Shown here: one piece after another, positions 20,775-53,020 of the stretch
Position numbering within the stretch: position 1 is the first letter of the stretch
Layout: every line of letters begins with the position of its first letter
Source: Clostridiaceae bacterium
GTDB lineage: Bacteria; Bacillota; Clostridia; Oscillospirales; Acutalibacteraceae
Direction of reading: 5' to 3'
NCBI GenBank assembly: GCA_016282855.1
Contig: JAEELT010000081.1
Location: 1-53,020, forward strand
DNA length: 53,020 nucleotides
Translations under genes and position numbers: made by a program
The notes under the pieces: generated by a model
Databases searched by the model: none
Seen by the model: only the letters and a program-made list of their open reading frames with translations
What the model was told of the DNA's origin: nothing

Positions 20775-20810
20775 AGCAGCCTGTACAAAATGTACAGGCT
20801 GCTTTGTTTT
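20775..20810 (+). terminator. Strong intrinsic terminator after the small ORF
   Basis: AGCAGCCTGTACA (20775-20787) and TGTACAGGCTGCT (20791-20803) form a perfect 13-bp stem with an AAA loop, followed by TTGTTTTTAT. The T tract is only on the plus strand. The convergent glycoside-hydrolase-like gene ends immediately beyond. Confidence 0.92.
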
Positions 20811-22030
20811 TATCTGAATGCTTCTTTAACTTCGTAAAATGCAGGTTTTGGATTGCCCTGCCCGTCAACTATCCCCCATCCCGTTTCAACAGGACAATCG
20901 CTTTGACCGCAGACATAACAATGATCGGTGTCGTTCCACATATAAATAAAAGAACCTGCGCACCAGGAGAGTGAACGTAGTTTGGGTATAAGATATTTAT
21001 AAAACTTCGCCTGACCTTCCGGAGAGTGCTTATAGCCGTAAAGACCGGTACCCTCCCGAAGCTCGCAGAAAATATGATTTGAAAACTCGCCGTTAAACAA
21101 AAGGTCAAACTTTTCTTCATCACTTCTGTCTGCATATATAGTTTCAAACTCTTTTTTTAATCCTTCGGGCAAACGGGAAATAAAAGTATTTACGTCTTGT
21201 TTTACTTCATCAAGGCTTTCAAAGCCGTATTTTCTGAGAATCTCTCTTTTTTCTTCGTCGCTTTTCGGCTCTCCGTAACCGATGTAACCAAACTCAGTCA
21301 TAATAAGCGGTTTGCGCGTTACAAGGCGAATCAGATTCATAGCCGCAAAGTAAATATCAATATTTTTTACAATGTTTTCAAATGAACCCAGATATAAGTC
21401 AACACCGACATAATCGCAATACTTATTGTATTTGAGCATTTTGAATGTAAGAGTAAGAAAGCCCATTCCGCCGAGGTTGTAACCGATGATTTCATCTTGT
21501 GCGAGAGGATACATAGCTTTCATTGTTTCTCCGACAAAATAAGCGGCTTCCTCCATTGTAAAAGGAGCGGTAAAGCGGTCCACTCCCATTTCATTTGCTA
21601 CCTGATAACCGGAAACAAGTCCTCTGAGGTCTTCCATATAAAAGCGGGCAACATCCATTATCGCTTCATAATCGGCTTCGTTTCTGATATCAAGGCCGTG
21701 CTGAAGAAATTCATTTGGATTGGGCGTAACAAGGAACACTTTGAATCCGTTATCGACATACTGCCTGATCCAGTTCTTAAAATACTGATAATAAAGGCTT
21801 ATTTCTCCGTTTTCATCAAAAGGATAAGTAGCGTCAACCCTTATCCATTCGATATTTGATTCGTGGATCAGTTCATAATCTTCCGAAGGATGACAGACAC
21901 CTTTTATATAGCCTGAATCTTTACCGGATTCAAACGAAGAAGGACCGGAAAAACCGGTAAACGGAAAAGTAAATACATTGACAACAGGAACAAGAACCGC
22001 AAGAATAAAACCGATTATCTTGTTAACCAT
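20810..22030 (-). CDS. Glycoside-hydrolase-like TIM-barrel protein, membrane-anchored or secreted
   Basis: A 406-aa protein with a hydrophobic N-terminal segment (about 5-25; signal peptide or anchor) and a clan GH-A-like (beta/alpha)8 barrel. The probable acid/base is E147 in YQVANEMG (Asn-Glu pair after strand 4) and the nucleophile E246 in PLIMTEFGYIG (strand 7). The C-terminus SFIYMWNDTDH followed by ETGWGIVDGQGNPKPAFY is typical of GH5/GH39/GH2-like barrels. The start is ATG 22030, behind AGGGCGGTG; a longer in-frame reading would overlap alr and lose the signal. Substrate unknown. It is the last gene of the D-amino-acid operon, which may be coincidental. Confidence 0.75.
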   Translation of the reverse strand: MVNKIIGFILAVLVPVVNVFTFPFTGFSGPSSFESGKDSGYIKGVCHPSEDYELIHESNIEWIRVDATYPFDENGEISLYYQYFKNWIRQYVDNGFKVFLVTPNPNEFLQHGLDIRNEADYEAIMDVARFYMEDLRGLVSGYQVANEMGVDRFTAPFTMEEAAYFVGETMKAMYPLAQDEIIGYNLGGMGFLTLTFKMLKYNKYCDYVGVDLYLGSFENIVKNIDIYFAAMNLIRLVTRKPLIMTEFGYIGYGEPKSDEEKREILRKYGFESLDEVKQDVNTFISRLPEGLKKEFETIYADRSDEEKFDLLFNGEFSNHIFCELREGTGLYGYKHSPEGQAKFYKYLIPKLRSLSWCAGSFIYMWNDTDHCYVCGQSDCPVETGWGIVDGQGNPKPAFYEVKEAFR

Positions 22031-22055
22031 GAACGCACCGCCCTTGAATAAAAAA

Positions 22056-23168
22056 TTATTCGGTATAAACTCTCGGAACACGTTTGGAAATTCTGCAGGG
22101 AAGTTCATAATTGAAGGAATACGCTTTTTCGCTTACTTCTTCCATTGAAAGTTCTTCAGAACCCTGCTTACCGACAAGCACGACCTCATCTCCGGGTCTG
22201 CAATCAATACCGGTAACATCAACCATAAACTGATCCATACATACCCTGCCGGTTATAGGAGCTCTTTTGCCTGAGATAAGTACCTCGCCGATATTGGAAA
22301 GGCATCTTGGATAACCGTCGGCATAGCCCACGGGAACAGTAGCGATTACTCTGTCGCCTTTAGCGGTATATGTTCCGCCGTAAGAAATCTCGCGCCCGTC
22401 CTCAAGAGTTTTGATATAAGATATACGGGCTTTCCAGGTAAGCGCAGGCTCAAGTCTGAGAACATTTTTATCCACCTCATCCGAGGGGTAAAGTCCGTAA
22501 GTGATAATACCCATACGGCACATATCAAAATAATCGTCAAAATCGATAATTCCCGCGCTGTTATTGAGATGCCTGAGCGGAATATTAACTCCTCTGCTTT
22601 CGAGCATAGATGCAAACTTTCTGTATTTTTCACGCTGAGCCAGCGCGCGGGTAAGGTCTTTGCAGTCCGCTGTGGCAAAATGTGAGAAAAGCCCCTCGGG
22701 ATAAATACCGGGCAGCGAAGCAATAGCTTTGCATATATCGGCATCTTTCTCGGTAACCTGAAAACCAATACGGCTCATTCCGGTATCAACAGCAAAATGA
22801 AACGGGGTATTTTTTCCGAGTTTAATACTCTGAGCAGAAAGAGCCTCGGCATCTTCCATAGTGAAAATGGGTATTCTTATGCCGTACTTGCAAACCGTTT
22901 CATAATCCCAGGGAAATACTCTGCCTAAAATGAGAACGGGATTCTTAATTCCGTTTTCTTTAAGTTCAACAGCTTCTTCAATTGTAGCTACACCGAAAAA
23001 ATCACATTTGCCGTCAAGAAGTCTGCTTATTCTGACAGCGCCGTGACCGTAAGCATCGGCTTTTACAACCGCAAGTATCGCGGCGCGGTCGCCGATTTTA
23101 TTTTTTACTTCGTTGAAATTGTGCTCAATTGCTTTGAGGTTTATTTCCGCGTATGTTCTCAGATTCAT
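22056..23168 (-). CDS. alr: Alanine racemase
   Basis: A 370-aa fold-type III PLP enzyme interconverting L- and D-alanine. The PLP lysine is K36 in VVKADAYGHGA; further landmarks are GMSRIGF, LNNSAGI, ISYGGTYTAKGDRVIATVPVGYADG and CMDQFMVDVT. Its start overlaps the pxpA stop (ATGA), so it is part of the aminotransferase-Pxp operon rather than a free-standing cell-wall gene. A separate biosynthetic copy may exist elsewhere. Confidence 0.96.
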   Translation of the reverse strand: MNLRTYAEINLKAIEHNFNEVKNKIGDRAAILAVVKADAYGHGAVRISRLLDGKCDFFGVATIEEAVELKENGIKNPVLILGRVFPWDYETVCKYGIRIPIFTMEDAEALSAQSIKLGKNTPFHFAVDTGMSRIGFQVTEKDADICKAIASLPGIYPEGLFSHFATADCKDLTRALAQREKYRKFASMLESRGVNIPLRHLNNSAGIIDFDDYFDMCRMGIITYGLYPSDEVDKNVLRLEPALTWKARISYIKTLEDGREISYGGTYTAKGDRVIATVPVGYADGYPRCLSNIGEVLISGKRAPITGRVCMDQFMVDVTGIDCRPGDEVVLVGKQGSEELSMEEVSEKAYSFNYELPCRISKRVPRVYTE

Positions 23169-23920
23169 TTTATCGCCTCTGAAAGATTAACAGTTTTGAT
23201 ATTGTTTTCGGCAAAAGCTCTGTTAAGAGCCTTAACAAAATTAAGCGCATTTTCGCTGTCGCCGTGTACACAAACGGAATGGGCTTCAATAGATATATCC
23301 TCGCCCGTGTATGCGCGCACCTTCCCTTCGGTAATCATCCTGAGCACACGGAAAATAGCTTCATTCTCATCGGTTATCATTGAACCCTCAAGCTTTCTTG
23401 CTCTTAAAGTGCCGTCGGCTTCATAGGCTCTGTCAGCAAAAACTTCACACGCGTAGTTGATACCGTATTTCCTGGCGGATTCAATCATCTCAGAGCCCGA
23501 AAGAGCAAGCAATATTAAATCTCTGTCAAAATCTTTAACGGCTTTTGCAATCGCATCTGAGAGATCAGGGCTTTTTGCCGCCATATTATACATTGCCCCG
23601 TGAGGCTTTATATGGCAGAGCTTTTTGTCCTTCGCACAGGCAAAGGCTGACAAAGCACCGAGCTGATACAGAGTAAACTCATAAACCTGCATGGGAGAAA
23701 CAGCCATATTTGTTCTGCCGAAGTTTTCTTTGTCCGGATAACCCGGATGCGCGCCGAAGGAAACACCGTTTGAAATACAGTTATCTATTGTTGCGTTCAT
23801 TATTCCTGCGTCACCGGCGTGAAATCCGCAGGCAATATTTGCCGAGGTAATAAGAGGAATGATTTTGCTGTCAAACTCAGCGCCCTCTCCGAGGTCTGAA
23901 TTCAAATCTATTTTATACAT
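23165..23920 (-). CDS. pxpA: 5-oxoprolinase subunit PxpA (LamB/YcsF family)
   Basis: A 251-aa member of the LamB/YcsF family, characterised as PxpA: with PxpB and PxpC it hydrolyses 5-oxoproline (pyroglutamate) to glutamate using ATP. Conserved features are DLNSDLGEG at the N-terminus, SANIACGFHAGD, GAHPGYPD, HIKPHGAMYN and HGDSENALNF near the end. It follows the DUF1445 gene by 9 nt and overlaps alr. Confidence 0.95.
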   Translation of the reverse strand: MYKIDLNSDLGEGAEFDSKIIPLITSANIACGFHAGDAGIMNATIDNCISNGVSFGAHPGYPDKENFGRTNMAVSPMQVYEFTLYQLGALSAFACAKDKKLCHIKPHGAMYNMAAKSPDLSDAIAKAVKDFDRDLILLALSGSEMIESARKYGINYACEVFADRAYEADGTLRARKLEGSMITDENEAIFRVLRMITEGKVRAYTGEDISIEAHSVCVHGDSENALNFVKALNRAFAENNIKTVNLSEAIK

Positions 23921-23929
23921 ACACTCACC

Positions 23930-24715
23930 TCAATATTTGAGACTTACATTTTTAACATCCGTTATAAACATATGGCCGGGCGCGTGAGTAATCGCGATGG
24001 GAGGCTTTGTTTGCATAACAGCATTCTGTGGAGTTACTCCGCAGGCCCAGAAAACAGGTGTTTCGCCCGGATTAACGGTAACTGAATCGCCGTAGTCCGG
24101 CTTTGATATATCGCTTATCCCGATGAATTCCGGGTTGCCTATATGAATCGGCGCGCCGTGAACTCTGGGCATTGCCGCGGTTACATTCACGGATTTAACA
24201 ACAAGTTCATCAGGAATAGGTCTCATTGAAACAACCATATTGCCGTGAAATTTTCCGGCAGGCCTGAGCTCAATATTTGTATTGAACATTGGCACATTTC
24301 TCTTTTCTTCAATGTGCCTTACGGGAATATCCGCCTCGAGCATCTCGCTCTCGAACGAAAATGAACAGCCGATAAGGAAATATACAAAGTTATTCTGCCA
24401 GTAATCCGTAATATCGGTAACCTCTTTAATCAGTTTACCGTCTTTCCAAATTCTGTATTTCGGGAAATCCTTGCATATATCTCCCCCGTTTGCCATCTCT
24501 CTGATATCTTTTGAGCCGACATCCCCCACTTCAAGAACGGGGCAAGGCTTAGGATTTCGCAAACAGAAGAGAAGAAAATCAAATGCGTAGTCCTCGGGCA
24601 GAATGCAAAGATTTGCCTGAGCATAACCGTTGCACATACCCGATGTCTGAAAATCGATTTTTCCTTCTCTGATCAGTTTTTTTACTTCCTGAGGATGCAT
24701 TGAGGAATAATCCAT
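23930..24715 (-). CDS. DUF1445 protein (YcsI type; D-glutamate cyclase N-domain homologue)
   Basis: A 261-aa protein of the DUF1445/putative hydro-lyase family (B. subtilis YcsI). It shows the family features SGMCNGYAQANLCILP, FVYFLIGCSFSFE, RPAGKFHGNMVVSMRPIP and ITHAPGHMFITD. The animal enzyme DGLUCY, D-glutamate cyclase, carries this domain followed by DUF4392, and the DUF4392 partner is in this same operon. It is inferred to form or open 5-oxo-D-proline with that partner. ATG 24715 is chosen because GGAGGT lies 6 nt upstream; an earlier ATG would overlap pxpC. Confidence 0.85.
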   Translation of the reverse strand: MDYSSMHPQEVKKLIREGKIDFQTSGMCNGYAQANLCILPEDYAFDFLLFCLRNPKPCPVLEVGDVGSKDIREMANGGDICKDFPKYRIWKDGKLIKEVTDITDYWQNNFVYFLIGCSFSFESEMLEADIPVRHIEEKRNVPMFNTNIELRPAGKFHGNMVVSMRPIPDELVVKSVNVTAAMPRVHGAPIHIGNPEFIGISDISKPDYGDSVTVNPGETPVFWACGVTPQNAVMQTKPPIAITHAPGHMFITDVKNVSLKY

Positions 24716-24719
24716 TTTA

Positions 24720-25643
24720 TTACCTCCCGGCAAGTTTATTATAGAATTTCATTTCTTTAACAGCGGCTTTTTCAGCCTTTTCAACGGTAATTCTTCTGAA
24801 ACGAATCCTGTCATTCCCTTTCGCCTGGGCAAGCTTGGGCAAATCGGCGGAAATAACTGTGGCAATTTTTGCATATCCGCCCGTAGTCTGATGATCTGCC
24901 ATAAGGATAATAGGCTGACCGTTTCTTGAAATCTGAACTGAGCCGAAAGCGATGCCGTCTGAAATAATATCCATACCGTCCTTGCCTTTGAGAGAAATAC
25001 CGTTGAGTCTGATTCCCATTCTGTCAAAAAAGGGAGATACACAGTAAATCTGGCTGAAAAACAGCTTTAAATCGGTATCGGTAAACATATCATCCTGAGG
25101 CCCCGGTACAGCCCTTACTGTAATTTCATTGGGATAAACATCTTTCTGAACTTCTTTTTTTAAATCCGGAGCCGATTTAAAACCACCGGTTTCAAGAATA
25201 TCCCCGGCTTTGAGCTTTCTGCCTTCAAGCCCGCCTACACCGATTTTCATATTTGTTGATGCACTGCCCATAACAAGAGGAACGGCAAATCCTCCGGAGA
25301 CAGCCAGATATGTTCTTATACCTGAAACGGCTTTTCCCATAGTCAGTTTGCTGCCCGCAGGAGCAAGATACGGTTTATTGTTTTTTATCGGAACGCCGTT
25401 TAATGACGGGCTGAAATTGCCTCCGCTGATGCAGAAATATGTGTCATGAATAAAATCACAGCATATTCCGGTAACGGTCATTTCAAGCACGGGAGCATTG
25501 AAATCATTGCCGCACAAAGTGTTTGCAACAACAGCGCTTCTCTTATCCATAACTCCGCTTTCGGTAAAACCGGTTTTCATAAACCCCGGTCTGCCGAGAT
25601 CCTGTACGGTAGTTATCATACCGGGCGATGTGATTCTTATCAT
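24720..25643 (-). CDS. pxpC: 5-oxoprolinase subunit PxpC (KipA, biotin-dependent carboxyltransferase-like)
   Basis: A 307-aa KipA/PxpC subunit. N-terminal MIRITSPGMITTVQDLGRPG is the family hallmark; later ones are SGVMDKRSAVVANTL, YLAVSGGF and NRMG-type FFDRMGIRLNG followed by GQPIILMADHQTTGGYAKIATV. It is a cyclophilin-like fold that acts with PxpB. ATG 25643 overlaps the pxpB stop as ATGA, with GGAGGTG as Shine-Dalgarno. Confidence 0.94.
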   Translation of the reverse strand: MIRITSPGMITTVQDLGRPGFMKTGFTESGVMDKRSAVVANTLCGNDFNAPVLEMTVTGICCDFIHDTYFCISGGNFSPSLNGVPIKNNKPYLAPAGSKLTMGKAVSGIRTYLAVSGGFAVPLVMGSASTNMKIGVGGLEGRKLKAGDILETGGFKSAPDLKKEVQKDVYPNEITVRAVPGPQDDMFTDTDLKLFFSQIYCVSPFFDRMGIRLNGISLKGKDGMDIISDGIAFGSVQISRNGQPIILMADHQTTGGYAKIATVISADLPKLAQAKGNDRIRFRRITVEKAEKAAVKEMKFYNKLAGR

Positions 25644-26365
25644 AAATTCACCTCCCGGCAAACAGGAGAATAAGTGCCTTGCGCAATCCTGTTTTCAAGC
25701 TCATCGAATTCTTCTCTGCTTATACTGTAAAATTGTATATATTCCCCGGCATTATAAAGAATAGGTGGATTTGCCTTGGGATCATACACATTTACAGGTG
25801 TTTTTCCTATAAGTCTCCAGCCGCCGGGAGAAGCAATCGGATAGATCCCCGTCTGCTCACCGCCTATTCCGACGGCTCCCTTGAAAATTTCAAGGCGTGG
25901 GCTTTCGAGTCTGGGTGTTACAAGGCGCTTGTCCATACCGCCCAGGTAAGCAAAACCGGGGAGAAATCCCAGCATATAAATCAGATAAGGCACGGATGTG
26001 TGGATAGTTATAATTTCGTCCTTTGTAAGGCCCGTATGCTGACAAACGCTTTCAATATCGAGGGCGAATTCATCATCGTAGCAAACAGGTATATCCCATA
26101 CTTTTGCGGCATTAGTGACGCCAACACTCAGATTATCAATTATTTCCGACAGTATTGCTTTCAGCTTGCGGGCTTTTATTACCGTGCAGTCATAAACAAT
26201 CATAAGTGAAGTGAATGTCGGAACGAGCTCCGTAACACCATCAATATGTTTATCCTGCACCGAAGAGGTTAACGCAGTAATATACGCGTTAACCTCTTCG
26301 CTTATTTCTTTTTCAAGCTGAACGGTCAATGCTCTGTCACCGTTTTGTAAAAAAGAATATTTCAT
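25640..26365 (-). CDS. pxpB: 5-oxoprolinase subunit PxpB (KipI)
   Basis: A 241-aa allophanate-hydrolase subunit 1-like protein (KipI/PxpB). The sequence FLQNGDRALTVQLE at the start, the motif YLIYMLGFLPGFAYLGGMD, PRLESPRLEIFKGAVGIGGEQTGIYPIASPGGWRLIG are diagnostic. In B. subtilis KipI also inhibits the sporulation kinase KinA, but the proven ancestral role is in 5-oxoprolinase. It overlaps the stop of the DUF4392 gene by 4 nt. Confidence 0.95.
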   Translation of the reverse strand: MKYSFLQNGDRALTVQLEKEISEEVNAYITALTSSVQDKHIDGVTELVPTFTSLMIVYDCTVIKARKLKAILSEIIDNLSVGVTNAAKVWDIPVCYDDEFALDIESVCQHTGLTKDEIITIHTSVPYLIYMLGFLPGFAYLGGMDKRLVTPRLESPRLEIFKGAVGIGGEQTGIYPIASPGGWRLIGKTPVNVYDPKANPPILYNAGEYIQFYSISREEFDELENRIAQGTYSPVCREVNL

Positions 26366-27420
26366 TTGTAAAACCCTTTTGATATAGTTTTGTCAAACCA
26401 TAAAGCTGTTTTATCCTCAACAGTCGGAGGATATTCAATAAGCGCTTTCATAAGGGAAACCATCGGCAGCACAATGTTTTTGCCGATTCCGTCAATATAA
26501 GGCCTTGCCTCGCCGTACATATCGAGCATACCGGCTCCGGCGGCGGCATCCATCACGGCAGACTGAATATCAGCTGAATGGAAAAGATCCGTATTGCCGA
26601 GAATAAATGCGGCTGCTGCCATAACTGCGTTACAGCCCCAGTCGGAAACGGTCGCGGTAAGGATATTGTCTGCCTTTGTGTCAGCAAGAATACCGTAACC
26701 GGTACCGGCTCTGCATCCGCCGAGTTCAGCGTAGGGAATATACTCTCTTATATGTTCTTCAATAGCGCCCATCCCGATTTCATTACCGAGATCGCCTATT
26801 GACATATTGTATATACCGAGCTCCTGACATTTAACAAACAGCACATCATATTTCGGCTCAATATCAGTAGTATTGAGACCGGTCGCATTATGATAATAAC
26901 CGTTTTTATTTCTGCCGGGCGCTTCATTTGAAATAACCGCGCAGGGTTTGCCGTGCGAAAGAATTTCAAGAGCCTGCTTTTCGGCTTCATTATCGTTTAA
27001 AGTAAAGGAAACGACAATAACCGTGCCGGGGTCACTGCAATCTAGATCAAAGCTTACTTTCATTGAAAGAACCTTGCTCATCGCTTCGACCGCTTTTACG
27101 CACTGCTCGGGAATAATCATCACGGGAATCGCCGAAAAGGCTTTGATAATGAAGCATGAAAGAACGGTTGAAGATATAATACCGTCAGTCTCGGCCTCAT
27201 TCCAGGGAGGAAGGACAAAGCCCGTAAGGATGAAAACTTTTTCGCCGGCTTTAATATTTTTGACAAGCCCTTTTGCGCAGTGAACAGAAAGAGGCTCACC
27301 GGTAAACTTTCTTGAGCCGTCATAAAGAATCCGGCAAACGCCGTATCCCCTGGGGTCGAGATTCATAAGTGTATCAAGATCTTCGCCTATATTAAAGAGA
27401 GTTAATTCTTCTTTGTTCAT
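26362..27420 (-). CDS. DUF4392 protein (D-glutamate cyclase C-domain homologue)
   Basis: A 352-aa protein matching DUF4392, the C-terminal domain of the mitochondrial D-glutamate cyclase DGLUCY. Features are the N-terminal DPRGYGVCRILYDGSRKF, VFILTGFVLPPWNEAETDG, VISNEAPGRNKNGYYHNATG and the glycine-rich GNEIGMGAIEEHI plus GGCRAGTGYGILADTK. A Glu-Xaa-Asp (EAETDG) cluster and conserved Glu/Asn residues may bind substrate or metal. It lies between the aminotransferase (11 nt upstream) and pxpB (4-nt overlap). Its role is inferred from family and context. Confidence 0.85.
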   Translation of the reverse strand: MNKEELTLFNIGEDLDTLMNLDPRGYGVCRILYDGSRKFTGEPLSVHCAKGLVKNIKAGEKVFILTGFVLPPWNEAETDGIISSTVLSCFIIKAFSAIPVMIIPEQCVKAVEAMSKVLSMKVSFDLDCSDPGTVIVVSFTLNDNEAEKQALEILSHGKPCAVISNEAPGRNKNGYYHNATGLNTTDIEPKYDVLFVKCQELGIYNMSIGDLGNEIGMGAIEEHIREYIPYAELGGCRAGTGYGILADTKADNILTATVSDWGCNAVMAAAAFILGNTDLFHSADIQSAVMDAAAGAGMLDMYGEARPYIDGIGKNIVLPMVSLMKALIEYPPTVEDKTALWFDKTISKGFYK

Positions 27421-27431
27421 ATTATCATCTC

Positions 27432-28274
27432 TTATGCTTTACACTGATTTTCAAAGTCGGCAACAAGCGCATCCTGAATTGTTTTGAGCATTTCGGGAGC
27501 TTTTCCGCCGACCGGCTTTCCGTCAACGGTTTTTACGGGAATGCAGAAAGAACCGGTTGAATGAACAATAACTTCATCTGCGTTCATCAGCTCGTCAAGC
27601 GTATAATCTCTCTCCTGAGTTTCAAAACCGAGATCCTTCGCAAATCTGAGCAGTCTGATGCGGGCGGTACCGGGAAGAATTTTATCATCAAGCGGATGAG
27701 TGATGACTTTTCCGTCTTTGAATATAGATACATTTGAGTGCGCGCATTCGGTGACAATATCACCTCTGTGGAATATAGCTTCCTGACAGCCTGCTCTTTT
27801 TGCGGCTGTTGCGCCAAGGCACGAAGGAATAAGGTTAAGTGTTTTGCAGTTGCAGTATAAGAATCTCTTATCTTCAAATGTTATAACATCAATGGGCTTA
27901 TATGTATCCTGTGTTTTGCAGGGAGTAAGAGTAATCCAGAGATTGCCCTTCATATTTTCATCAAATACATGCTCTCTGAGCCCGCTTCCTCTGGTAACCT
28001 GCATATATACAAACTGATCGGGGTCATCCACCTTAAGAACAAGATCCTTAAGGAGAGCTTCAAGCTCGCTGCGCTCAACAGGAATATTTATCTCAAGAAT
28101 TTTTGCGCTGTTATAAAACCTGTTAAGGTGGGCATCGATATCAAAGATTTTATGGTTATGAGCGTAAGTGGCATCATAAATGCCGTCTCCGAACCAGCAA
28201 ACTCTGTCAAGCATCGGAATACTCATCTTTTCAATTTCGTCGTATTTTCCGTTGTAGTAACCTAAATTCTGCAT
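27432..28274 (-). CDS. dat: D-amino acid aminotransferase (class IV PLP)
   Basis: A 280-aa fold-type IV aminotransferase. The PLP lysine is K144 in YCNCKTLNLIP. HRGDIVTECAHSNVSIFKDG and ITHPLDDKILPGTARIRLLRFA are close to bacterial D-alanine transaminase rather than branched-chain or lyase relatives. The expected reaction is D-alanine plus 2-oxoglutarate to pyruvate plus D-glutamate. First gene of the minus operon, behind a good promoter. An L-branched-chain specificity is less likely given Alr and D-glutamate-cyclase homologues in the operon. Confidence 0.87.
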   Translation of the reverse strand: MQNLGYYNGKYDEIEKMSIPMLDRVCWFGDGIYDATYAHNHKIFDIDAHLNRFYNSAKILEINIPVERSELEALLKDLVLKVDDPDQFVYMQVTRGSGLREHVFDENMKGNLWITLTPCKTQDTYKPIDVITFEDKRFLYCNCKTLNLIPSCLGATAAKRAGCQEAIFHRGDIVTECAHSNVSIFKDGKVITHPLDDKILPGTARIRLLRFAKDLGFETQERDYTLDELMNADEVIVHSTGSFCIPVKTVDGKPVGGKAPEMLKTIQDALVADFENQCKA

Positions 28275-28333
28275 ATCGATTTACCTTCTTTTAGAAAATT
28301 TCGGGCAAATTCAATTATTGCTCGTTACAAAAA

Positions 28334-28362
28334 ATTCTAATACAAATTTCAGCGTATGTAAA
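28334..28362 (-). promoter_or_regulatory. Promoter of the dat-pxp-alr operon
   Basis: On the minus strand, TTTACA (28362-28357), 17-bp spacer, TAGAAT (28339-28334); start expected near 28327, leader about 53 nt. The rhamnosidase promoter lies about 45 bp away on the other strand. Confidence 0.65.
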
Positions 28363-28406
28363 GTAGTAATATGTATTTTTTTCAATAAAATTATCATAAA
28401 TTTGTG

Positions 28407-28435
28407 TTGTAATATGAAGACAAATTAACTATAAT
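28407..28435 (+). promoter_or_regulatory. Promoter of the GH78 rhamnosidase
   Basis: TTGTAA (28407-28412), 17-bp spacer, TATAAT (28430-28435) on plus; start near 28442, giving a leader of about 27 nt with CGGAGGT before the ATG. Confidence 0.65.
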
Positions 28436-28468
28436 GAAACTAATATAATTTTTATCGGAGGTCATAAT

Positions 28469-30823
28469 ATGAAGTTTCCGTGCAGGTTTTATCGGGCACA
28501 GTCAGATTATAACTCTTATGAAAAACATGTTAACGCTCCCCTTATCAGAAAAGAAATAGAGATTGAGAGCTTTATTAACGCTGCAGTTCTTATTTCGGGT
28601 CTCGGTTTTTACAGATTGTTTATCAACGGCAACGAAATAAAAAAAGGCTTGCTGGCGCCTTACATTTCAAACCCCGATGATTATGTTTATTTTGATTTAT
28701 TTAATGTAACCAAATACCTTAACAAAGGTAAAAACGCAATTTGCATTATTCTCGGAAACGGTATGCAGAATGCTCCCGGTGGAAGAGTGTGGGACTTTGA
28801 TACAGCGCGATTCAGAGGAACTCCCAGATTTGCTTTTTCATTAGCGGTTGAAAAAAGCGGTGAAGAGACCGAAATAATCGAAGCGGACGAATCATTCAAA
28901 TGGACTGCCTCTCCGATAGTATTTGATGATATAAGAAGCGGATGCTTCTATGACGCCAATCTCGAAATCGACGGCTGCTATCTGCCCGGTTTTGATGATT
29001 CTTCCTGGAATAATGTCTCTGCAACGGAATCCCCCCGCGGAAAATACAGAATCTGCGAAGCCGATCCTGTAGTTATAACAGAAGAATTAAAAGCAGTTAA
29101 CATACGCGAAGGTGTTCTAAGTGAAGATTTCGGAAACCGAGACAATATGAAGCTTGACACTCAGTTCAAGTTTAACTGCAGAGGAAAAAAAGGATATATA
29201 TTTGATTTCGGAGTTAATTCGGCAGGTATTTTCCGGCTGACGGTTGACGGCATAAAAAACCGGCAGATATTCATTCAGCTGTGTGAATTTGAAAACACGA
29301 GAGGCGAACCGTCGTATATAACTACAGGCTCGTTTTATCCTGATGGTTACGGACAGACGGCATTATACATCTGCAAAGGAGAAAAAGAAGAGGTTTTTGA
29401 GCCCTCATTCACTTATTTCGGTTACAGATACGCATTTGTTTACGGTCTTGAAAAAGATCAGGTTAACGAAAACACTCTTGTAATGCTGAAAGCGAGCTCG
29501 GAACTTAAAGAAAGAGCGTCATTTAAGTGCAGCGACCCCGTAATGAATGAGCTCGGAAAAATGAGCAGGACAAGCGACCTGGCAAACTTTTATTATTTCC
29601 CAACCGATTGTCCGCACAGAGAGAAAAACGGCTGGACAGGCGATGCGGCAGTTTCCTGCGAAAGACTGCTGCTCACACTTACGCCGGAAAAAAGCTACCG
29701 TGAATGGCTGAGAAATATATGCGCTTCACAGCGCGAAGACGGCTCTCTGCCCGGGATTGTACCTACCGGAGGCTGGGGCTTCGAATGGGGTAACGGTCCC
29801 GCTTGGGACAATGTTCTCACCGAGCTTTGCTGGCAGATTTACAGACTCAGAGGAGACCTCGAGCCGGCGCGTGAGTGCAGTGAATCAATGCTGAGATATC
29901 TTTCCTATCTTTCCGCAAAAAGACGTGACGACGGCCTTATTGCAATCGGTCTGGGCGACTGGCTGCAGCCCGGAAAGGGAGCCGGAAGCCCGACCGCTCC
30001 ACTTTATCTTACGGACAGCGTAATATCAATGTATATCAGCAGAAAATCCGCAGATTTATTCAAGGCTCTCGGTATGGAAATTCAATATAAGTTTGCCGAA
30101 AGTCTTTCCCGCTCATTCAGGCAGGCAATCAGAGATAATCTGATTGATTTCAGCACAATGACAGTCAAATCAAGATGCCAGACAGCTCAGGCAATCTGCA
30201 TTTATTACGGAGTATTTGAGAAAGGAGAAGTGCTTCAGGCAGCGAAAGTTTTATCAGAGATTTGCCGCGAGAATAAAGAATTCATAAACTGCGGTATGAT
30301 TGGTCTGAGAACGATTTTTCATGTTCTTTCCGATGCGGGCGAGGGCGAGCTCGCATATAAAATGATTACCAGACCCGAATATCCTTCATACGGTCACTTT
30401 GTTGCCCGCGGCTTTACTTCATTGCCTGAGGACTTTCTTGATGATGACAGAGCCGATACACCTAATTCACTTAACCATCATTTCTTCGGCGATATAATCA
30501 GCTGGTTTATCCAAAGAGTTGCAGGTATAAGAGTAAATCCGCGTAATACAAGCTGCAAAGACTTTGATATCTGCCCCGATTTTATCGAGTCGCTTAACTT
30601 TGCAGAGGCTTACTATGACGCCCCTTGCGGACGCGTTGCTGTTAAATGGAAAAAGCAGAGCGGCAGAGCTGATATTATTATTGAATGCCCCGACAACGCT
30701 ACAGGATTTATCAGAATGCCCTCGGGTTGGTCATTTTCAGATGATAACACCGAATCTTCTCTGCACGGATCAGACATCGCAGTATTGAAGGCGGGTAAGT
30801 ACTTTGCTGATAAAGTAAGATAA
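28469..30823 (+). CDS. Alpha-L-rhamnosidase, GH78
   Basis: A 784-aa glycoside hydrolase removing terminal alpha-L-rhamnose from plant or bacterial glycans. It carries N-terminal beta-sandwich domains (GFYRLFINGNEI; NGMQNAPGGRVWDF), a rhamnosidase concanavalin-like domain around 240-330, and an (alpha/alpha)6 catalytic barrel with the diagnostic PTDCPHREKNGWTGDA near 380. A C-terminal beta domain follows. There is no signal peptide, so it probably acts on imported oligosaccharides in the cytoplasm. No transporter or rhamnose catabolic genes are adjacent. CGGAGGT lies 7 nt before ATG 28469. Confidence 0.93.
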   Translation: MKFPCRFYRAQSDYNSYEKHVNAPLIRKEIEIESFINAAVLISGLGFYRLFINGNEIKKGLLAPYISNPDDYVYFDLFNVTKYLNKGKNAICIILGNGMQNAPGGRVWDFDTARFRGTPRFAFSLAVEKSGEETEIIEADESFKWTASPIVFDDIRSGCFYDANLEIDGCYLPGFDDSSWNNVSATESPRGKYRICEADPVVITEELKAVNIREGVLSEDFGNRDNMKLDTQFKFNCRGKKGYIFDFGVNSAGIFRLTVDGIKNRQIFIQLCEFENTRGEPSYITTGSFYPDGYGQTALYICKGEKEEVFEPSFTYFGYRYAFVYGLEKDQVNENTLVMLKASSELKERASFKCSDPVMNELGKMSRTSDLANFYYFPTDCPHREKNGWTGDAAVSCERLLLTLTPEKSYREWLRNICASQREDGSLPGIVPTGGWGFEWGNGPAWDNVLTELCWQIYRLRGDLEPARECSESMLRYLSYLSAKRRDDGLIAIGLGDWLQPGKGAGSPTAPLYLTDSVISMYISRKSADLFKALGMEIQYKFAESLSRSFRQAIRDNLIDFSTMTVKSRCQTAQAICIYYGVFEKGEVLQAAKVLSEICRENKEFINCGMIGLRTIFHVLSDAGEGELAYKMITRPEYPSYGHFVARGFTSLPEDFLDDDRADTPNSLNHHFFGDIISWFIQRVAGIRVNPRNTSCKDFDICPDFIESLNFAEAYYDAPCGRVAVKWKKQSGRADIIIECPDNATGFIRMPSGWSFSDDNTESSLHGSDIAVLKAGKYFADKVR

Positions 30824-31554: not shown

Positions 31555-33501
31555 TCAATCCTCCCCGTCTTTCTTGTAAGCGGCAGCAACAGCTTTATCA
31601 TAAACAGCTTTATCAATCTTTATACCGAGAGTTTTAAGACGGTGCCAGGTGGGAATGCCGTCTTTCCAGCCTCTGGCCCGGTAGAAGACTTTTTTCATCT
31701 GTTCAAGAGGAACCTTGGTTTTGGGATTATTTGGATCCTGAAGCTCTTCAGTCAGGCGTTTGGGCAGCTTATCGGCACCGGCTTTCTGGCCGAGAATGAC
31801 ATTTGACATTCTCTCGGCATTCCATCCGTAAGCGCCCCAGGTGAGGAATTTTGCCATATTTGATTTCATACCTGTTGCGAGCTTAACCGCAATTGCGTGC
31901 GGAAGAAGCGGGATATTGATTTGAGGCACTTTGGTAAAATGACTCAAAAGATTAACAACGGGACCGACATAAGGAAAGGCCGCGAGAATTATTTTGGTTA
32001 AAACAAGATTAGGCTTTGCAATAAGGAAACCCGGAAGAACAGCATAGCTTGTAAACATGCAACTGCCCGCGCCCGATATTGATTCCATAAGATTCTGGAA
32101 CATAATTCCGATGGCAGCTTTGCCGTGAGGAGTAAGAGAATTGACATCGAGACCGAGGCCTTCAACAACAACCATATATCCTGCGTTGAGGTGGCATCCG
32201 CCCCTGTTTGCAGTTGCATAGCCGAGTCCCTGACCGACGGCGTGACGAGGCTCATAAGCTGCAAGTTCCATACCTTTAGCGTTAATGGCGAATTCCTTGC
32301 CGCCGAACTTGTCGCTCATTCGTTTGGAACCTTCGGCAATTTCATTGCCATCTCCCCTGCGGTATGCTATATCTTCAAACATCTGAGAAATATTATCGGT
32401 TTCACCGAAATGAACTCCGAAATCGTGTATTCCTTTTTCGGCAAGCTCCATTGCAAAGGCTATCGAACCGGCGCAGGAAATAGCGTCCATTCCCAGCTCA
32501 TCAAGCTCATAATTCCATTTAAGAATTTTTTCAATATCATCATTTAAAATATTCGGCCCGAAAAGACCGAGAGTTTCAAGCTCGGGACCTTTTACAATCT
32601 TATCATTTACAACAACTTTTCTCGCGCATCTGATTACGCAGCCCGTGCAGGCTCCGTTTGAAACAAGGTGTTTTTCTGCAAGCTCTTCGCCTGAAACTTT
32701 CTCAAACCCGTCAAATCTGCCTGCGGAGAAGTTCTTGGTAGCGAGAATGGAATGCGCCTGCATAGGAGCAATAAGCCCTGCGCTTCCGAGCTTTGGCAGC
32801 TGCCTGCCGGTGAGTGGATGAGTTTTGAGAAGCTTTGTCCATTTAATGTTGAAATCCCTTAGTTTCTCTTCATCGGCAATCTTTGGGAGCATTGTTCCCA
32901 CGGCTGTAACTGCTTTCAGCTTTTTGTCGCCGAATACGGCACCGACACCACCTCTTCCGGCGGTCCTTTCATTGCTGAAGACGCAGGCATACCTTACTTT
33001 GTTTTCGCCTGCAGGGCCGATAACAAGCCTGCCCGGATAATCGAGCAGCTTTTCCTGAGTTTCACCTGTTGTGAGACCCCAAAGCTCCTCTGCGCTCTCA
33101 AACTCTGCTTTATTTCTTGAAATGTGAACTGTGACAGGCTTTTCGCTTTTGCCGGTAAAGATAACCGCATCATAGCCGGCTCTTTTGAGAGAAAGACCGA
33201 AATCGCCTCCGCAGTTTGAGGAGGTAATGATATTCGTGAGCGGAGAAACAGTGGAAATATTGAATCTTGAAGTGTTCGGACAGCCGCATCCGGTGAGCGG
33301 ACCGGTAGTAACAACAAGCCAGTTATCTTCGTCAAATGCCTTCATTTCGGGAGTAATGTGATGCAGAAGAATATCAGCCGCCATTATTTTACCGCCGAGA
33401 GTACGTTCCCTGTCCTTATCGGTCCAGGGGAACTCGCTGAATGACTGTTTTGTAAGATCTACAAAAAGAACTTTTCCCATATAACCGCAGTATTCAGTCA
33501 A
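31555..33501 (-). CDS. aor: Tungsten-dependent aldehyde:ferredoxin oxidoreductase (AOR family)
   Basis: A 648-aa AOR-family enzyme with two tungstopterins and a [4Fe-4S] cluster that oxidises aldehydes to acids and reduces ferredoxin. The cluster ligands are C285, C288, C292 (CTGCVIRC) and distal C481, matching the C-X2-C-X3-C...C pattern of the family. Pterin motifs include LGGKIMAADIL, ERTAGRGGVGAVFGDKKLKA, LDELGMDAISCAG and ANRGGCHLNAGY. Family length is about 600-650. TTG 33501 is the start (AGAGGTG 8 nt upstream) and overlaps the thiF stop. Context (tup transporter, cofactor genes) supports tungsten over molybdenum. Aldehyde substrate unknown. Confidence 0.93.
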   Translation of the reverse strand: MTEYCGYMGKVLFVDLTKQSFSEFPWTDKDRERTLGGKIMAADILLHHITPEMKAFDEDNWLVVTTGPLTGCGCPNTSRFNISTVSPLTNIITSSNCGGDFGLSLKRAGYDAVIFTGKSEKPVTVHISRNKAEFESAEELWGLTTGETQEKLLDYPGRLVIGPAGENKVRYACVFSNERTAGRGGVGAVFGDKKLKAVTAVGTMLPKIADEEKLRDFNIKWTKLLKTHPLTGRQLPKLGSAGLIAPMQAHSILATKNFSAGRFDGFEKVSGEELAEKHLVSNGACTGCVIRCARKVVVNDKIVKGPELETLGLFGPNILNDDIEKILKWNYELDELGMDAISCAGSIAFAMELAEKGIHDFGVHFGETDNISQMFEDIAYRRGDGNEIAEGSKRMSDKFGGKEFAINAKGMELAAYEPRHAVGQGLGYATANRGGCHLNAGYMVVVEGLGLDVNSLTPHGKAAIGIMFQNLMESISGAGSCMFTSYAVLPGFLIAKPNLVLTKIILAAFPYVGPVVNLLSHFTKVPQINIPLLPHAIAVKLATGMKSNMAKFLTWGAYGWNAERMSNVILGQKAGADKLPKRLTEELQDPNNPKTKVPLEQMKKVFYRARGWKDGIPTWHRLKTLGIKIDKAVYDKAVAAAYKKDGED

Positions 33502-34680: not shown

Positions 34681-34726
34681 TAAAATACTTTATTTATTGA
34701 ATAAAACGTGATATTATTATACTGAT

Positions 34727-34838
34727 ATTATCCGAGCTTTCAAGGCTAAGTGGAAGCAAATCATACGCCTTGTCAGCCGAAGCCGAAATCCACAACGGCT
34801 TAAGGGTATCGCGGGAAACGGCGCTGCCTTCCGTGTTT
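34727..34838 (+). ncRNA. Probable Moco/Tuco (molybdenum/tungsten cofactor) riboswitch
   Basis: A GC-rich, strongly structured leader in otherwise AT-rich DNA directly before tupA. Pairings seen: CAAGGC (34741-34746) with GCCTTG (34767-34772); GTGGA (34750-34754) with TCCAC (34789-34793); AAGCCG (34780-34785) with CGGCTT (34796-34801); AAGG (34802-34805) with CCTT (34827-34830), which encloses a GAAA-type loop. Opening TCCGAGC and the GGGAAACGG segment resemble the Moco RNA motif as I remember it. That motif precedes molybdate/tungstate transport and cofactor genes, exactly the context here. There is no T tract between it and AAGGAG at 34841, so control would be at translation. Identity needs a covariance search. 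Confidence 0.7.
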
Positions 34839-34855
34839 GAAAAGGAGAATATATC

Positions 34856-35734
34856 ATGAAAAAAATAATTGCTCTTGTCCTGGCACTTGTTTTTGTTGCC
34901 GGTTTTACCGCTTGCGGAGCAAAAACAGAAGACGCTTCAGAGCAGGCATCATCAACCTCTTCAGCACAACCTGAAACCCTTGCTCCGGACAACCCTGTTA
35001 TACGACTTTCAACCACTACTTCAGTCAACGACTCGGGCCTTCTCCCCTATCTTCTTCCGGCTTTTGAAGCCGAGACAGGCTATAAGGTTGAAGTTCAGTC
35101 CGCAGGCACAGGCGCAGCTATTCAGAAGGCAATTGACGGAAACGCCGATGTAATTCTCGTTCACGCTAAGGCCTCCGAAGAGGAATTTATAAGCGACGGC
35201 TACGGCATCGAAAGACTTCCGTTTATGTATAATTATTTTGTTATTGCAGGTCCCAAAGACGATCCTGCCGGCATTAAAGGAAGCGCTGATGCTGCTCAGG
35301 CTTTTGATAAGATCGAAGAAACCGAAAGCAAATTTGTTTCCAGAGGCGATGAGAGCGGAACTCACAAGGCCGAGCTTAAAATCTGGGGCGACGATGTTCC
35401 CGACGCAGCTGAAGACAGCTGGTATATCAGCGCAGGTCAGGGAATGGGCGCCTGTCTTACAATGGCAAGCGAACAGCAGGCATACTGCCTGACTGATAAG
35501 GCAACCTTCCTTTCAATGCAGGATGAACTCAATTTAGATATAGTTCTTGCCGAAGGCGAGGACATGAAGAATACTTATTCACTCATAGCGGTCAATCCCG
35601 AAAAGATTGACGGCATCAACACCGAAGGCGCACAGGCATTTATCGATTGGATGCTCAGAGACGAAGCGAGCGCTCTTATCGCAGAATATGGCGAGAAAGA
35701 ATACGGCTCCGCTCTTTTCACTCTTCTTAAATAA
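34856..35734 (+). CDS. tupA: Tungstate ABC transporter, substrate-binding lipoprotein TupA
   Basis: A 292-aa lipoprotein (lipobox FTAC, C20) that binds tungstate with very high affinity outside the cell. The TupA signature STTTSVNDSGLLPYLLPAFE binds the oxyanion, followed by VILVHAKASEEEFI and FVSRGDESGTHKAELKIW. A Ser/Thr-rich linker follows the lipid anchor. AAGGAG precedes ATG 34856. It heads tupABC behind the candidate riboswitch, giving the locus its tungsten assignment. Confidence 0.94.
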   Translation: MKKIIALVLALVFVAGFTACGAKTEDASEQASSTSSAQPETLAPDNPVIRLSTTTSVNDSGLLPYLLPAFEAETGYKVEVQSAGTGAAIQKAIDGNADVILVHAKASEEEFISDGYGIERLPFMYNYFVIAGPKDDPAGIKGSADAAQAFDKIEETESKFVSRGDESGTHKAELKIWGDDVPDAAEDSWYISAGQGMGACLTMASEQQAYCLTDKATFLSMQDELNLDIVLAEGEDMKNTYSLIAVNPEKIDGINTEGAQAFIDWMLRDEASALIAEYGEKEYGSALFTLLK

Positions 35735-52894: not shown

Positions 52895-53020
52895 GTGAAA
52901 GCTCACACCCACAAGCGGTACGTCCACTGGCCCCGGACGATCCAGTGCCGCCTGATGGGACAAGTTAATACGAACAGCTGCCTACTGGATAAGGAAGCTG
53001 CAGACCGGAACGGAGAAATC
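52895..53020 (+). CDS. Possible partial ORF at the right edge
   Basis: An open plus-strand frame from GTG 52895 to the window end (42 codons, KAHTHKRYVHWPRTIQCRL near its start); an internal ATG is at 52955. There is no good Shine-Dalgarno and I recognise no family. The base composition is visibly richer in GC than the neighbours, so a foreign element may begin here. Confidence 0.2.
   Translation, partial: MKAHTHKRYVHWPRTIQCRLMGQVNTNSCLLDKEAADRNGEI

What the first reader, a model, noticed from the sequence alone, without database searches (positions are those of the whole stretch)
22056..28274. Operon linking D-Ala/D-Glu metabolism to 5-oxoproline hydrolysis
Seven tightly packed minus-strand genes encode a D-amino acid aminotransferase, a DUF4392 protein, PxpB, PxpC, a DUF1445 protein, PxpA and alanine racemase. 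DUF1445 plus DUF4392 make up the animal D-glutamate cyclase, and PxpABC is the bacterial ATP-dependent 5-oxoprolinase. Together they suggest a route L-Ala to D-Ala to D-Glu to 5-oxo-D-proline and on to glutamate. This could drain or buffer D-glutamate, competing with peptidoglycan supply, or salvage wall-derived D-Glu. Whether PxpABC accepts the D isomer, or a racemising step exists, is open.
Basis: partly seen in the sequence, partly recalled or inferred. Interest (0 to 1): 0.8.

Follow-up and report, generated by a model that had tools for sequence, protein, structure and literature searches.

The report
Clostridial D-glutamate and 5-oxoproline gene cluster
A gut bacterium keeps genes that could make the cell-wall building block D-glutamate in one tight cluster with genes that could turn it back into ordinary glutamate, and the cluster recurs in many related bacteria, which makes an unproven bacterial D-glutamate disposal route testable.

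Summary
Seven tightly packed minus-strand genes encode Dat, DUF4392, PxpB, PxpC, DUF1445, PxpA and Alr. It is not chance: in 80 related loci Dat directly precedes DUF4392 in 68, and the full set occurs in two gene orders, in 28 and 10 loci. In 291 genomes of the class, 10 of 11 with DUF4392 also have DUF1445, against 19 of 291 overall; five of those pairs are unlinked.

The interpretation needs turning round. The window's genome (85.55% complete) shows no glutamate racemase; its only alanine racemase match and only full-length Dat lie here. Of seven near-complete relatives with the locus, five also show none. So here the cluster probably supplies wall D-glutamate as well as disposing of it. 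In Clostridium-type genomes it mostly coexists with MurI and a second Alr, as expected of a removal route.

Best reading: Alr and Dat make D-glutamate; DUF4392 (conserved di-metal site) cyclises it; DUF1445 and PxpABC return it to glutamate at ATP cost. All activities are inferred. How configuration is inverted is unknown; DUF1445 (three invariant cysteines) is the candidate.

The parts
27432..28274 (-). [quoted passage not shown]
   Evidence: Pfam Aminotran_4; best PDB relatives 3lqs/1daa D-amino acid aminotransferases, 149 bits; TRG..R.H motif in 64 of the 68 Dat proteins of the 80 loci and in the window
26362..27420 (-). DUF4392 / GLUCM-like_C protein (homologue of the C-terminal half of animal D-glutamate cyclase); putative di-metal D-glutamate cyclase
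   Evidence: PF14336 274 bits, profile 1-290 of 291; model TM-score up to 0.86 by target length to TON_0340; the six metal-binding acids of TON_0340 map to E77 D79 E166 D210 E214 D310 and are kept wherever the column is filled in 91 aligned rows
25640..26365 (-). PxpB, 5-oxoprolinase subunit
   Evidence: CT_C_D, TIGR00370 over cut-off
24720..25643 (-). PxpC, 5-oxoprolinase subunit (ORF list gives 25661 as start; ATG at 25643 behind GGGAGG is likelier)
   Evidence: CT_A_B, TIGR00724 over cut-off, start
23930..24715 (-). DUF1445 / D-Glu_cyclase family protein (homologue of the N-terminal half of animal D-glutamate cyclase; B. subtilis YcsI family). ORF list gives 24733 as start; ATG at 24715 is likelier
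   Evidence: PF07286, NF003969 over cut-off, 3db9 and 2pif relatives; Cys64, Cys123 and Cys231 (numbered from the listed start) kept wherever the column is filled in 79 aligned rows; start
23165..23920 (-). PxpA, 5-oxoprolinase subunit
   Evidence: LamB_YcsF, NF003814 over cut-off, closest PDB entry 1xw8 UPF0271 protein ybgL
22056..23168 (-). Alr, alanine racemase; the only TIGR00492 match found in this genome
   Evidence: (378.7 bits, cut-off 168)
28275..28468 (-). intergenic stretch upstream of the operon, between divergent genes; promoter expected here, purine-rich box just before the ATG at 28274
   Evidence: sequence read; promoter scan not above shuffles

Best explanation
The cluster is a D-glutamate hub with a supply arm and a disposal arm. 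Supply: Alr turns L-alanine into D-alanine, and Dat passes its amino group to 2-oxoglutarate, giving D-glutamate and pyruvate. Disposal: DUF4392, a di-manganese-type enzyme, cyclises D-glutamate to 5-oxo-D-proline, a direction favoured thermodynamically. DUF1445 hands the lactam on in a form PxpABC can use, most simply by inverting the alpha carbon to 5-oxo-L-proline, and PxpABC opens it with ATP to glutamate. The net effect is a one-way, ATP-paid conversion of surplus D-glutamate (and, through Dat and Alr, D-alanine) into L-glutamate. In Clostridium-type genomes, which mostly have MurI and a second Alr, it works as a D-amino-acid disposal or salvage route. In the window's lineage, where no glutamate racemase is seen, the same operon also became a source of wall D-glutamate. 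Shown here: gene content, order, conservation, conserved residues, absence of MurI matches. Inferred: every catalytic activity, the direction of flow, the inversion step and its assignment to DUF1445.
For: Families. Neighbourhood: complete seven-gene order in 10 of 23 loci fetched from 22 relatives, parts of it cut by contig ends in 7 more; in 80 loci Dat-DUF4392 adjacent in 68, PxpB-PxpC in 66, DUF1445-PxpA in 56, full sets in two orders (28 and 10 loci), all seven families on one strand in every locus. Pairing without linkage: 10 of 11 genomes with DUF4392 over cut-off also have DUF1445 versus 19 of 291 overall, five of the pairs on different contigs (Fisher p about 1e-12, no correction for kinship). 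A shorter, low-scoring DUF4392 form sits with DUF1445 and PxpABC in L176, in the domain order of the animal fusion. Di-metal site kept. One Alr match and no TIGR00067 or PF01177 match in G000 and in near-complete G007, G016 and G021; the same in G019 apart from a 20-bit second Alr-model match. In order-1 loci holding Alr, that is the only Alr over 280 bits in 19 of 19 genomes and MurI is over cut-off in 4 of 19, against 9 of 12 where Alr is not in the locus (Fisher p 0.0075). In Clostridium-type loci with Alr, MurI is over cut-off in 10 of 11 and at least two strong Alr are found in 10 of 11. Neighbours: Lrp/AsnC regulator just upstream of Dat in 14 of 80 loci, sodium:alanine symporter in 4, branched-chain-type amino-acid permeases in 6. 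Keq [L-Glu]/[5-OP] about 0.035 and the assumed PxpABC mechanism from PMC13274462 (passages).
Against: No activity was measured. TON_0340, the only DUF4392 protein with a structure found, showed weak manganese-dependent phosphatase activity (PMC5132392), and I saw no report of cyclase activity of a bacterial DUF4392. DUF1445 is not tied to this pathway: of 14 loci fetched around DUF1445 without DUF4392, 7 have PxpABC and 7 have no Pxp gene in the stretch fetched. Some of the 80 loci lack core parts without an obvious contig end: L123 and L146 have PxpBC but no DUF1445 or PxpA, L118 and L131 have DUF1445 but no Pxp genes, L115 and L157 have Dat-DUF4392 only, L135, L142 and L151 have DUF4392 alone. 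Four genomes (G002, G011, G023, G028) have a DUF4392-Alr pair with no PxpABC in the stretch fetched and no DUF1445, strong Dat or MurI over cut-off; the model does not explain them (G028 does have a PF01177 protein). Lack of MurI is not special to the locus: 28 of the 76 relatives without PF14336 also lack it over cut-off. Absences rest partly on incomplete MAGs. G000 has three DapF matches and Chlamydia DapF can racemise glutamate (PMC5885031, passages), so D-glutamate need not come from Dat. G000 also holds a second, partial Dat-like match on another contig (95 bits). Five of the 19 order-1 genomes have a second, weaker Alr-model match (165-189 bits, counted over the 168-bit cut-off).
Confidence: 0.42

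Rival explanations
1. Salvage of the D lactam without inversion: PxpABC of this cluster accepts 5-oxo-D-proline and yields D-glutamate, which Dat then converts with pyruvate into 2-oxoglutarate and D-alanine, and Alr into L-alanine. The DUF proteins are accessory (repair phosphatase, sensor or binding protein), not cyclases.
For: Chemically closed without any inversion step; Dat and Alr are reversible (recalled); amino-acid transporter genes lie beside some loci; the DUF4392 protein TON_0340 was assayed as a phosphatase; the DUF1445 model resembles the NrpR-like protein 3nek, and NrpR senses 2-oxoglutarate (recalled).
Against: The animal protein built of these two domains is a D-glutamate cyclase by assay, and its loss raises D-glutamate in mouse heart (PMC5339696, passages). 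DUF1445 keeps 28 polar, Tyr/Trp or Cys positions in at least 97% of up to 79 rows, more like an enzyme than a sensor.
Confidence: 0.2
2. Bookkeeping operon: Alr and Dat are simply the cell-wall D-amino-acid supply, co-expressed with an ordinary L-5-oxoproline repair enzyme (PxpABC plus DUF1445) that mends spontaneously cyclised glutamate. There is no D-glutamate disposal.
For: In G000 Alr and Dat are the only recognisable D-Ala and D-Glu sources apart from possible DapF side activity. DUF1445 with PxpABC is seen without DUF4392 in 7 loci and in B. subtilis beside a Mn importer (PMC10448178, passages).
Against: In Clostridium-type genomes MurI and a second Alr mostly exist, yet the same set is kept together. 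DUF4392 co-occurs with DUF1445 even when unlinked and stays next to Dat in 68 of 80 loci.
Confidence: 0.22
3. One reading: a pure drain of D-glutamate that competes with peptidoglycan supply, fed by alanine.
For: Fits the Clostridium-type genomes that also have MurI and the Lrp-type regulator upstream.
Against: In the window's own genus the operon holds the only recognisable D-glutamate source, so a pure drain would be self-defeating unless another enzyme such as DapF makes D-glutamate.
Confidence: 0.1

Closest known systems
Animal D-glutamate cyclase DGLUCY (mouse 9030617O03Rik, human C14orf159)
   Same: Same two domains, DUF1445 and DUF4392; D-Glu to 5-oxo-D-Pro shown for the mouse protein (PMC5339696, passages). 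Split homologues of GLUCM_HUMAN in gut bacteria were already counted: 6 split, 0 full (PMC11580864, table passage).
   Different: Here two separate genes inside an operon with Dat, Alr and an ATP-dependent 5-oxoprolinase; in mammals 5-oxo-D-proline is a measured end product.
Bacterial PxpABC 5-oxoprolinase operons (B. subtilis pxpA-ycsG-ycsI-pxpB-pxpC; C. glutamicum pxpTABC)
   Same: PxpA, PxpB, PxpC; B. subtilis also has YcsI in the operon (PMC10448178, passages) and is the one of 14 control genomes that matches the DUF1445 family (that YcsI is that protein is recalled).
   Different: From the passages, those carry a Mn importer (B. subtilis) or an APC-type transporter (C. glutamicum); no Dat, Alr or DUF4392 was mentioned. 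The window operon has no such transporter. DUF1445 of the Dat/DUF4392 loci forms a clan apart from 15 outside rows (14 without DUF4392, plus L176; FastTree support 0.999), PxpA apart from 8 (0.907); PxpB and PxpC do not clearly do so.
Dat-based D-amino-acid supply in bacteria (Dat beside or instead of MurI)
   Same: Dat can make D-amino acids from other D-amino acids (PMC5885031, passage); Alr feeds it.
   Different: Supply genes are embedded in one operon with the putative disposal genes.
TON_0340 of Thermococcus onnurineus (DUF4392, PDB 4dwz, 4fc5, 5gkx, 5gl2-5gl4)
   Same: Fold and six metal-binding acids.
   Different: TON_0340 is shorter (268 aa), archaeal, and assayed as a weak Mn-dependent phosphatase; the window protein has 352 aa and is linked to Dat.

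Membership tests
PxpABC ATP-dependent 5-oxoprolinase | Clustered PxpA, PxpB and PxpC homologues | tested here: met
PxpABC ATP-dependent 5-oxoprolinase | NCBIfam equivalog cut-off for PxpC (NF045499, 500 bits) | tested here: not met
   262 bits; 3 other PxpC proteins tried (L127 Clostridium-type cluster, L176, L187 without DUF4392) score 226-275, so the cut-off does not separate this cluster from those
PxpABC ATP-dependent 5-oxoprolinase | ATP-dependent hydrolysis of 5-oxoproline, and which isomer | not testable with these tools
   needs enzyme assay
D-glutamate cyclase (DGLUCY type) | Both domains, PF07286 and PF14336 | tested here: met
   as two genes
D-glutamate cyclase (DGLUCY type) | Fusion of the two domains in one chain | tested here: not met
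   separate ORFs with PxpB and PxpC between them
D-glutamate cyclase (DGLUCY type) | Conversion of D-Glu to 5-oxo-D-Pro | not testable with these tools
   needs chiral assay
DUF4392 metal enzyme (TON_0340 type) | Six acidic metal ligands | tested here: met
   E77 D79 E166 D210 E214 D310
D-amino-acid aminotransferase | Fold-IV aminotransferase with R.H carboxylate trap (role recalled) | tested here: met
D-amino-acid aminotransferase | NCBIfam TIGR01121 cut-off 277 bits | tested here: not met
   211 bits; 0 of 99 relatives reach it
Alanine racemase | TIGR00492 over cut-off, both Pfam domains | tested here: met
Two-cysteine cofactor-independent racemase (for DUF1445) | Cysteine pair facing one active site | tested here: inconclusive
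   three invariant cysteines, but no coordinates to measure whether two face one site; no racemase among the Foldseek matches with E <= 0.001

The most novel reading that the evidence does not exclude
DUF1445 is a cofactor-independent two-cysteine 5-oxoproline racemase. With DUF4392 as cyclase and PxpABC as ATP-driven lactam opener it forms an 'anti-MurI': an irreversible, ATP-paid inversion of D-glutamate to L-glutamate through the lactam. The same logic would explain why a DUF1445 protein accompanies PxpABC in B. subtilis (use of 5-oxo-D-proline) and why it is fused to the cyclase in animals.
Probability: 0.17. Interest if true: 0.85.

Novelty: new variant of a known kind. Interest (0 to 1): 0.6.

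Why it matters
How bacteria dispose of D-glutamate other than through a racemase is not clear from the papers I saw, and I saw no function assigned to bacterial DUF1445 proteins although one sits in the B. subtilis pxp operon. This cluster ties both halves of the animal D-glutamate cyclase to a 5-oxoprolinase and to D-alanine metabolism across Clostridia, and gives a direct test of which domain does what and of how the lactam's configuration is handled. It also points to a gut lineage in which D-glutamate supply and disposal may share one operon after apparent loss of MurI.

Tried and rejected
Independent recruitment of PxpBC. In FastTree trees the Clostridium-type PxpB and PxpC lie far from the order-1 ones (mean distance 3.15 and 2.68, against 2.0-2.6 from either to outside loci), which suggested separate recruitment. 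The AU test on 44 of 80 PxpB rows and 44 of 75 PxpC rows does not reject a single clade (p 0.65 and 0.62), so the claim was dropped.

A divergent, D-specific PxpC. The failed PxpC cut-off is shared by the 3 other PxpC proteins tried: no evidence.

'Cluster replaces MurI everywhere': rejected, since MurI is over cut-off in 27 of the 50 cluster-bearing genomes examined, and 28 of 76 relatives without DUF4392 lack MurI as well.

Dat as the only possible D-glutamate source: weakened by three DapF matches in G000 and the Chlamydia DapF precedent.

'DUF1445 always travels with PxpABC': rejected on recount; 7 of 14 DUF1445 loci without DUF4392 have no Pxp gene in the stretch fetched (at least one, L190, is at a contig end). 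Two of the seven with PxpABC (L179, L182) come from genomes that have a DUF4392 elsewhere. For this, and for the MurI recount, I lowered the best explanation from 0.45 to 0.42 and the novel case from 0.20 to 0.17, and raised the bookkeeping rival from 0.20 to 0.22.

DUF1445 as a regulator: the NrpR-like match (E 4e-4, TM about 0.4, model pLDDT 69) is weak and the invariant residues argue for catalysis; left open as part of a rival.

RNA elements and promoter: nothing in Rfam at the operon, and promoter hits are at shuffle level.

Literature: searches. Listings are capped (30 of 133; 40 of 96; 15 of 20; 25 of 40; 8 of 86), and I judged most papers by title and start of abstract. None listed looked like a description of this cluster. 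The library holds only open-licence papers, and the founding PxpABC paper (identifier recalled) was not held. One search found 0 papers with the four racemase or epimerase phrases searched.

Full report
WHAT IS THERE. The seven reported genes exist at 22056-28274 on the minus strand, in transcription order Dat, DUF4392, PxpB, PxpC, DUF1445, PxpA, Alr. All match their Pfam families well over the cut-offs. With starts at 24715 (DUF1445) and 25643 (PxpC), each behind a GGGAGG box, neighbours overlap by 4 bases or are 4 to 11 bases apart, so one transcript is likely. The ORF downstream (20810-22108) has no Pfam match and the gene upstream (28469-30823, plus strand) is a rhamnosidase-type enzyme; neither belongs to the set. 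The window lies in G000:C105, a 2.32 Mb assembly in 140 contigs, 85.55% complete.

THE PARTS. Dat: closest solved structures are D-amino-acid aminotransferases (149 bits); the TRG..R.H stretch is kept in the window and in 64 of the 68 Dat proteins of the 80 loci (that R and H hold the carboxylate is recalled). DUF4392: Foldseek places the model (pLDDT 84) on TON_0340 (TM up to 0.86 by target length). The six acids that bind metal in TON_0340 (PMC5132392, passages) map to E77, D79, E166, D210, E214 and D310 and are unchanged in 91 aligned DUF4392 rows, apart from one gap at each of the first two. A di-metal site that activates a carboxylate for ring closure would resemble dihydroorotase (analogy from recall). 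DUF1445: homologues 3db9 and 2pif. Across up to 79 rows, 28 polar, Tyr/Trp or Cys positions are kept in at least 97%, among them Cys64 and Cys123 in 79 of 79 and Cys231 in 78 of 78 rows with a letter. Outside its own family the model (pLDDT 69) finds, at E <= 0.001, only the NrpR-like protein 3nek (E 4e-4). PxpABC: the assumed mechanism is phosphorylation of 5-oxoproline by PxpB and PxpC, then opening and dephosphorylation with PxpA (PMC13274462, passages).

CONSERVATION. Relatives (99 genomes, the window's own included): PF14336 in 23, PF07286 in 15, all 15 among the 23; a Dat-type match over 200 bits in 20, in 17 of them at the PF14336 locus. Of 23 loci fetched around PF14336 from the 22 other genomes, 10 show the complete seven-gene order, 7 show parts of it cut by contig ends, 4 show only DUF4392 followed by Alr, and 2 show DUF4392 without the other six (L032, whose Dat side is cut by a contig end, and L045). 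Titled genomes: a scan with the DUF4392 alignment found 221 relatives and kept the best 80; some are the same genomes as above. In the 80, Dat is present in 68 and always directly before DUF4392; PxpB in 70, PxpC in 66, DUF1445 in 60, PxpA in 56, Alr in 45; many short loci end at contig ends, so these are lower bounds. Full sets come in two orders: Dat-DUF4392-PxpB-PxpC-DUF1445-PxpA-Alr (28 loci) and Dat-DUF4392-DUF1445-PxpA-Alr-PxpB-PxpC (10 loci, among them C. chromiireducens, C. neonatale, C. acidisoli, C. tyrobutyricum and C. akagii), with all family members on one strand in every locus. Exceptions not explained by contig ends: L123 and L146 have PxpBC but no DUF1445 or PxpA; L118 and L131 have DUF1445 but no Pxp genes; L115 and L157 have only Dat-DUF4392; L135, L142 and L151 only DUF4392; L126, L137, L141 and L149 lack Dat. 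The profiles used for these loci were built from the window and nine relatives' loci.

CO-OCCURRENCE. Class sample: 291 genomes drawn evenly; PF14336 over cut-off in 11, PF07286 in 19, both in 10. Of the 10, five are linked (G000, G312, G317, G355, G387) and five lie on different contigs (G168, G201, G255, G279, G413). One genome, G355, has DUF1445-DUF4392-PxpA-PxpB-PxpC with a shorter DUF4392 and no Dat or Alr (L176). I fetched the 14 remaining DUF1445 loci of the sample, those with no DUF4392 beside them: 7 have PxpABC there, of which 6 also carry an Nramp-like gene judged by its translated start (in the seventh, L182, only a short ORF), and 7 have no Pxp gene in the stretch fetched. So DUF1445 is wider than this pathway, with PxpABC a frequent but not constant partner, and DUF4392 with Dat is what this cluster adds.

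D-GLUTAMATE SUPPLY. Glutamate racemase (TIGR00067) is over cut-off in 50 of 99 relatives but in only 2 of the 23 with PF14336 (G047, G092), and absent from G000. This is not special to the locus: 28 of the 76 without PF14336 lack it too. PF01177 also finds none in G000. G000 has one Alr match, the window gene, and one full-length Dat, the window gene, plus a partial Dat-like match (95 bits) and a weak one. Seven relatives at least 95% complete carry Dat with DUF4392: G007, G016, G019, G021 and G069 match neither racemase model, G047 has MurI, and G052 has a PF01177 protein. Of those five, G007, G016, G019 and G021 have one Alr over cut-off, in the locus; G069 has two. For 50 of the 80 loci (chosen by me, mostly long ones) the genome was searched for MurI and Alr. 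Order-1 loci with Alr: 19 genomes, each with a single Alr over 280 bits (five also have a second match of 165-189 bits counted over the cut-off), MurI over cut-off in 4; of the other 15, 8 have no match and 7 a weak one. Order-1 loci without Alr: 12 genomes, MurI in 9 (four of the 12 also lack Dat, and L126 ends soon after PxpA). Order-2 loci with Alr: 11 genomes, MurI in 10, two or more strong Alr in 10. Fisher p for the order-1 contrast is 0.0075, without correction for kinship or completeness. Reading: where MurI exists, the cluster is mostly an accessory route with its own extra Alr or none; where it is missing, the cluster's Alr and Dat are the only recognisable D-Ala and D-Glu makers, apart from possible DapF side activity.

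NEIGHBOURS. Of the 80 loci, 14 carry an Lrp/AsnC-type regulator directly upstream of Dat, 4 a sodium:alanine symporter nearby, 6 branched-chain-type amino-acid permeases, and 5 (Clostridium-type) biotin carrier and biotin carboxylase genes after PxpC. These fit a route for amino acids rather than a wall-only role. The families were assigned on one representative per sequence cluster.

HOW IT MOST LIKELY WORKS. Alr and Dat make D-glutamate from alanine and 2-oxoglutarate. DUF4392 closes D-glutamate to the lactam, which equilibrium favours (Keq [L-Glu]/[5-OP] about 0.035, PMC13274462, passage). PxpABC reopens it at ATP cost. If both steps kept the D configuration the pair would only burn ATP; since the set is conserved, I infer that configuration is inverted on the way, or that the pools differ. 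DUF1445 is the best candidate for the inversion because it is the conserved partner of DUF4392 with no other assigned role, often stands with PxpABC, and keeps three cysteines, where two-cysteine racemases need two. This step is a guess with no test here. Against it: mouse DGLUCY, with the same domain, yields 5-oxo-D-proline (PMC5339696), no racemase fold was found, and DUF1445 also occurs away from Pxp genes.

NOVELTY. Each family is known, and YcsI in the B. subtilis pxp operon (PMC10448178) and split cyclase homologues in gut bacteria (PMC11580864, a table row) are in print. I found no description of this seven-gene cluster in the listings of searches, which were capped, and subscription papers are not covered. 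I rate it a new variant of a known kind. Papers were seen only as search listings or passages; none was read whole.

Noticed in passing
L035, L039, L043 (G011, G002, G023) and L044 (G028): DUF4392 directly followed by Alr, in three of them downstream of genes that look like dnaG and rpoD by their translated starts. These genomes have no MurI over cut-off and no strong Dat (G028 has a PF01177 protein), so their D-glutamate source is unclear; a promiscuous DapF is possible in three, while G023 (63% complete) shows no DapF match.
   Followed up: partly
G000:C122 (L193:4297-8289, minus strand): A 1330-aa ORF joins carbamoyl-phosphate synthase large-chain domains to a diaminopimelate epimerase domain. 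Many relatives have a DapF match inside an open frame of about 1350 aa.
   Followed up: partly
L107, L116, L127, L129, L139; also L169 by translated start: Biotin carrier and biotin carboxylase genes follow PxpBC in Clostridium-type loci, recalling urea carboxylase architecture.
   Followed up: no
L092, L097, L098: A tRNA_edit domain protein follows Alr in three loci.
   Followed up: no
L106, L108, L148; also L178 by translated start: A cytidylate-kinase-like protein lies just upstream of Dat, behind ABC transporter genes.
   Followed up: no
window 34718-34863 (+) and 31555-33501 (-): A molybdenum/tungsten cofactor riboswitch (78.6 bits) lies near an aldehyde ferredoxin oxidoreductase gene on the other strand.
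   Followed up: no
window 52908-53020 (+): DUF2800 RNA motif cut off by the end of the window.
   Followed up: no
DUF1445 model md9f6cdee3ed9: The only fold match outside the family at E <= 0.001 is an NrpR-like archaeal protein (3nek), hinting at a shared small-acid-binding fold.
   Followed up: partly
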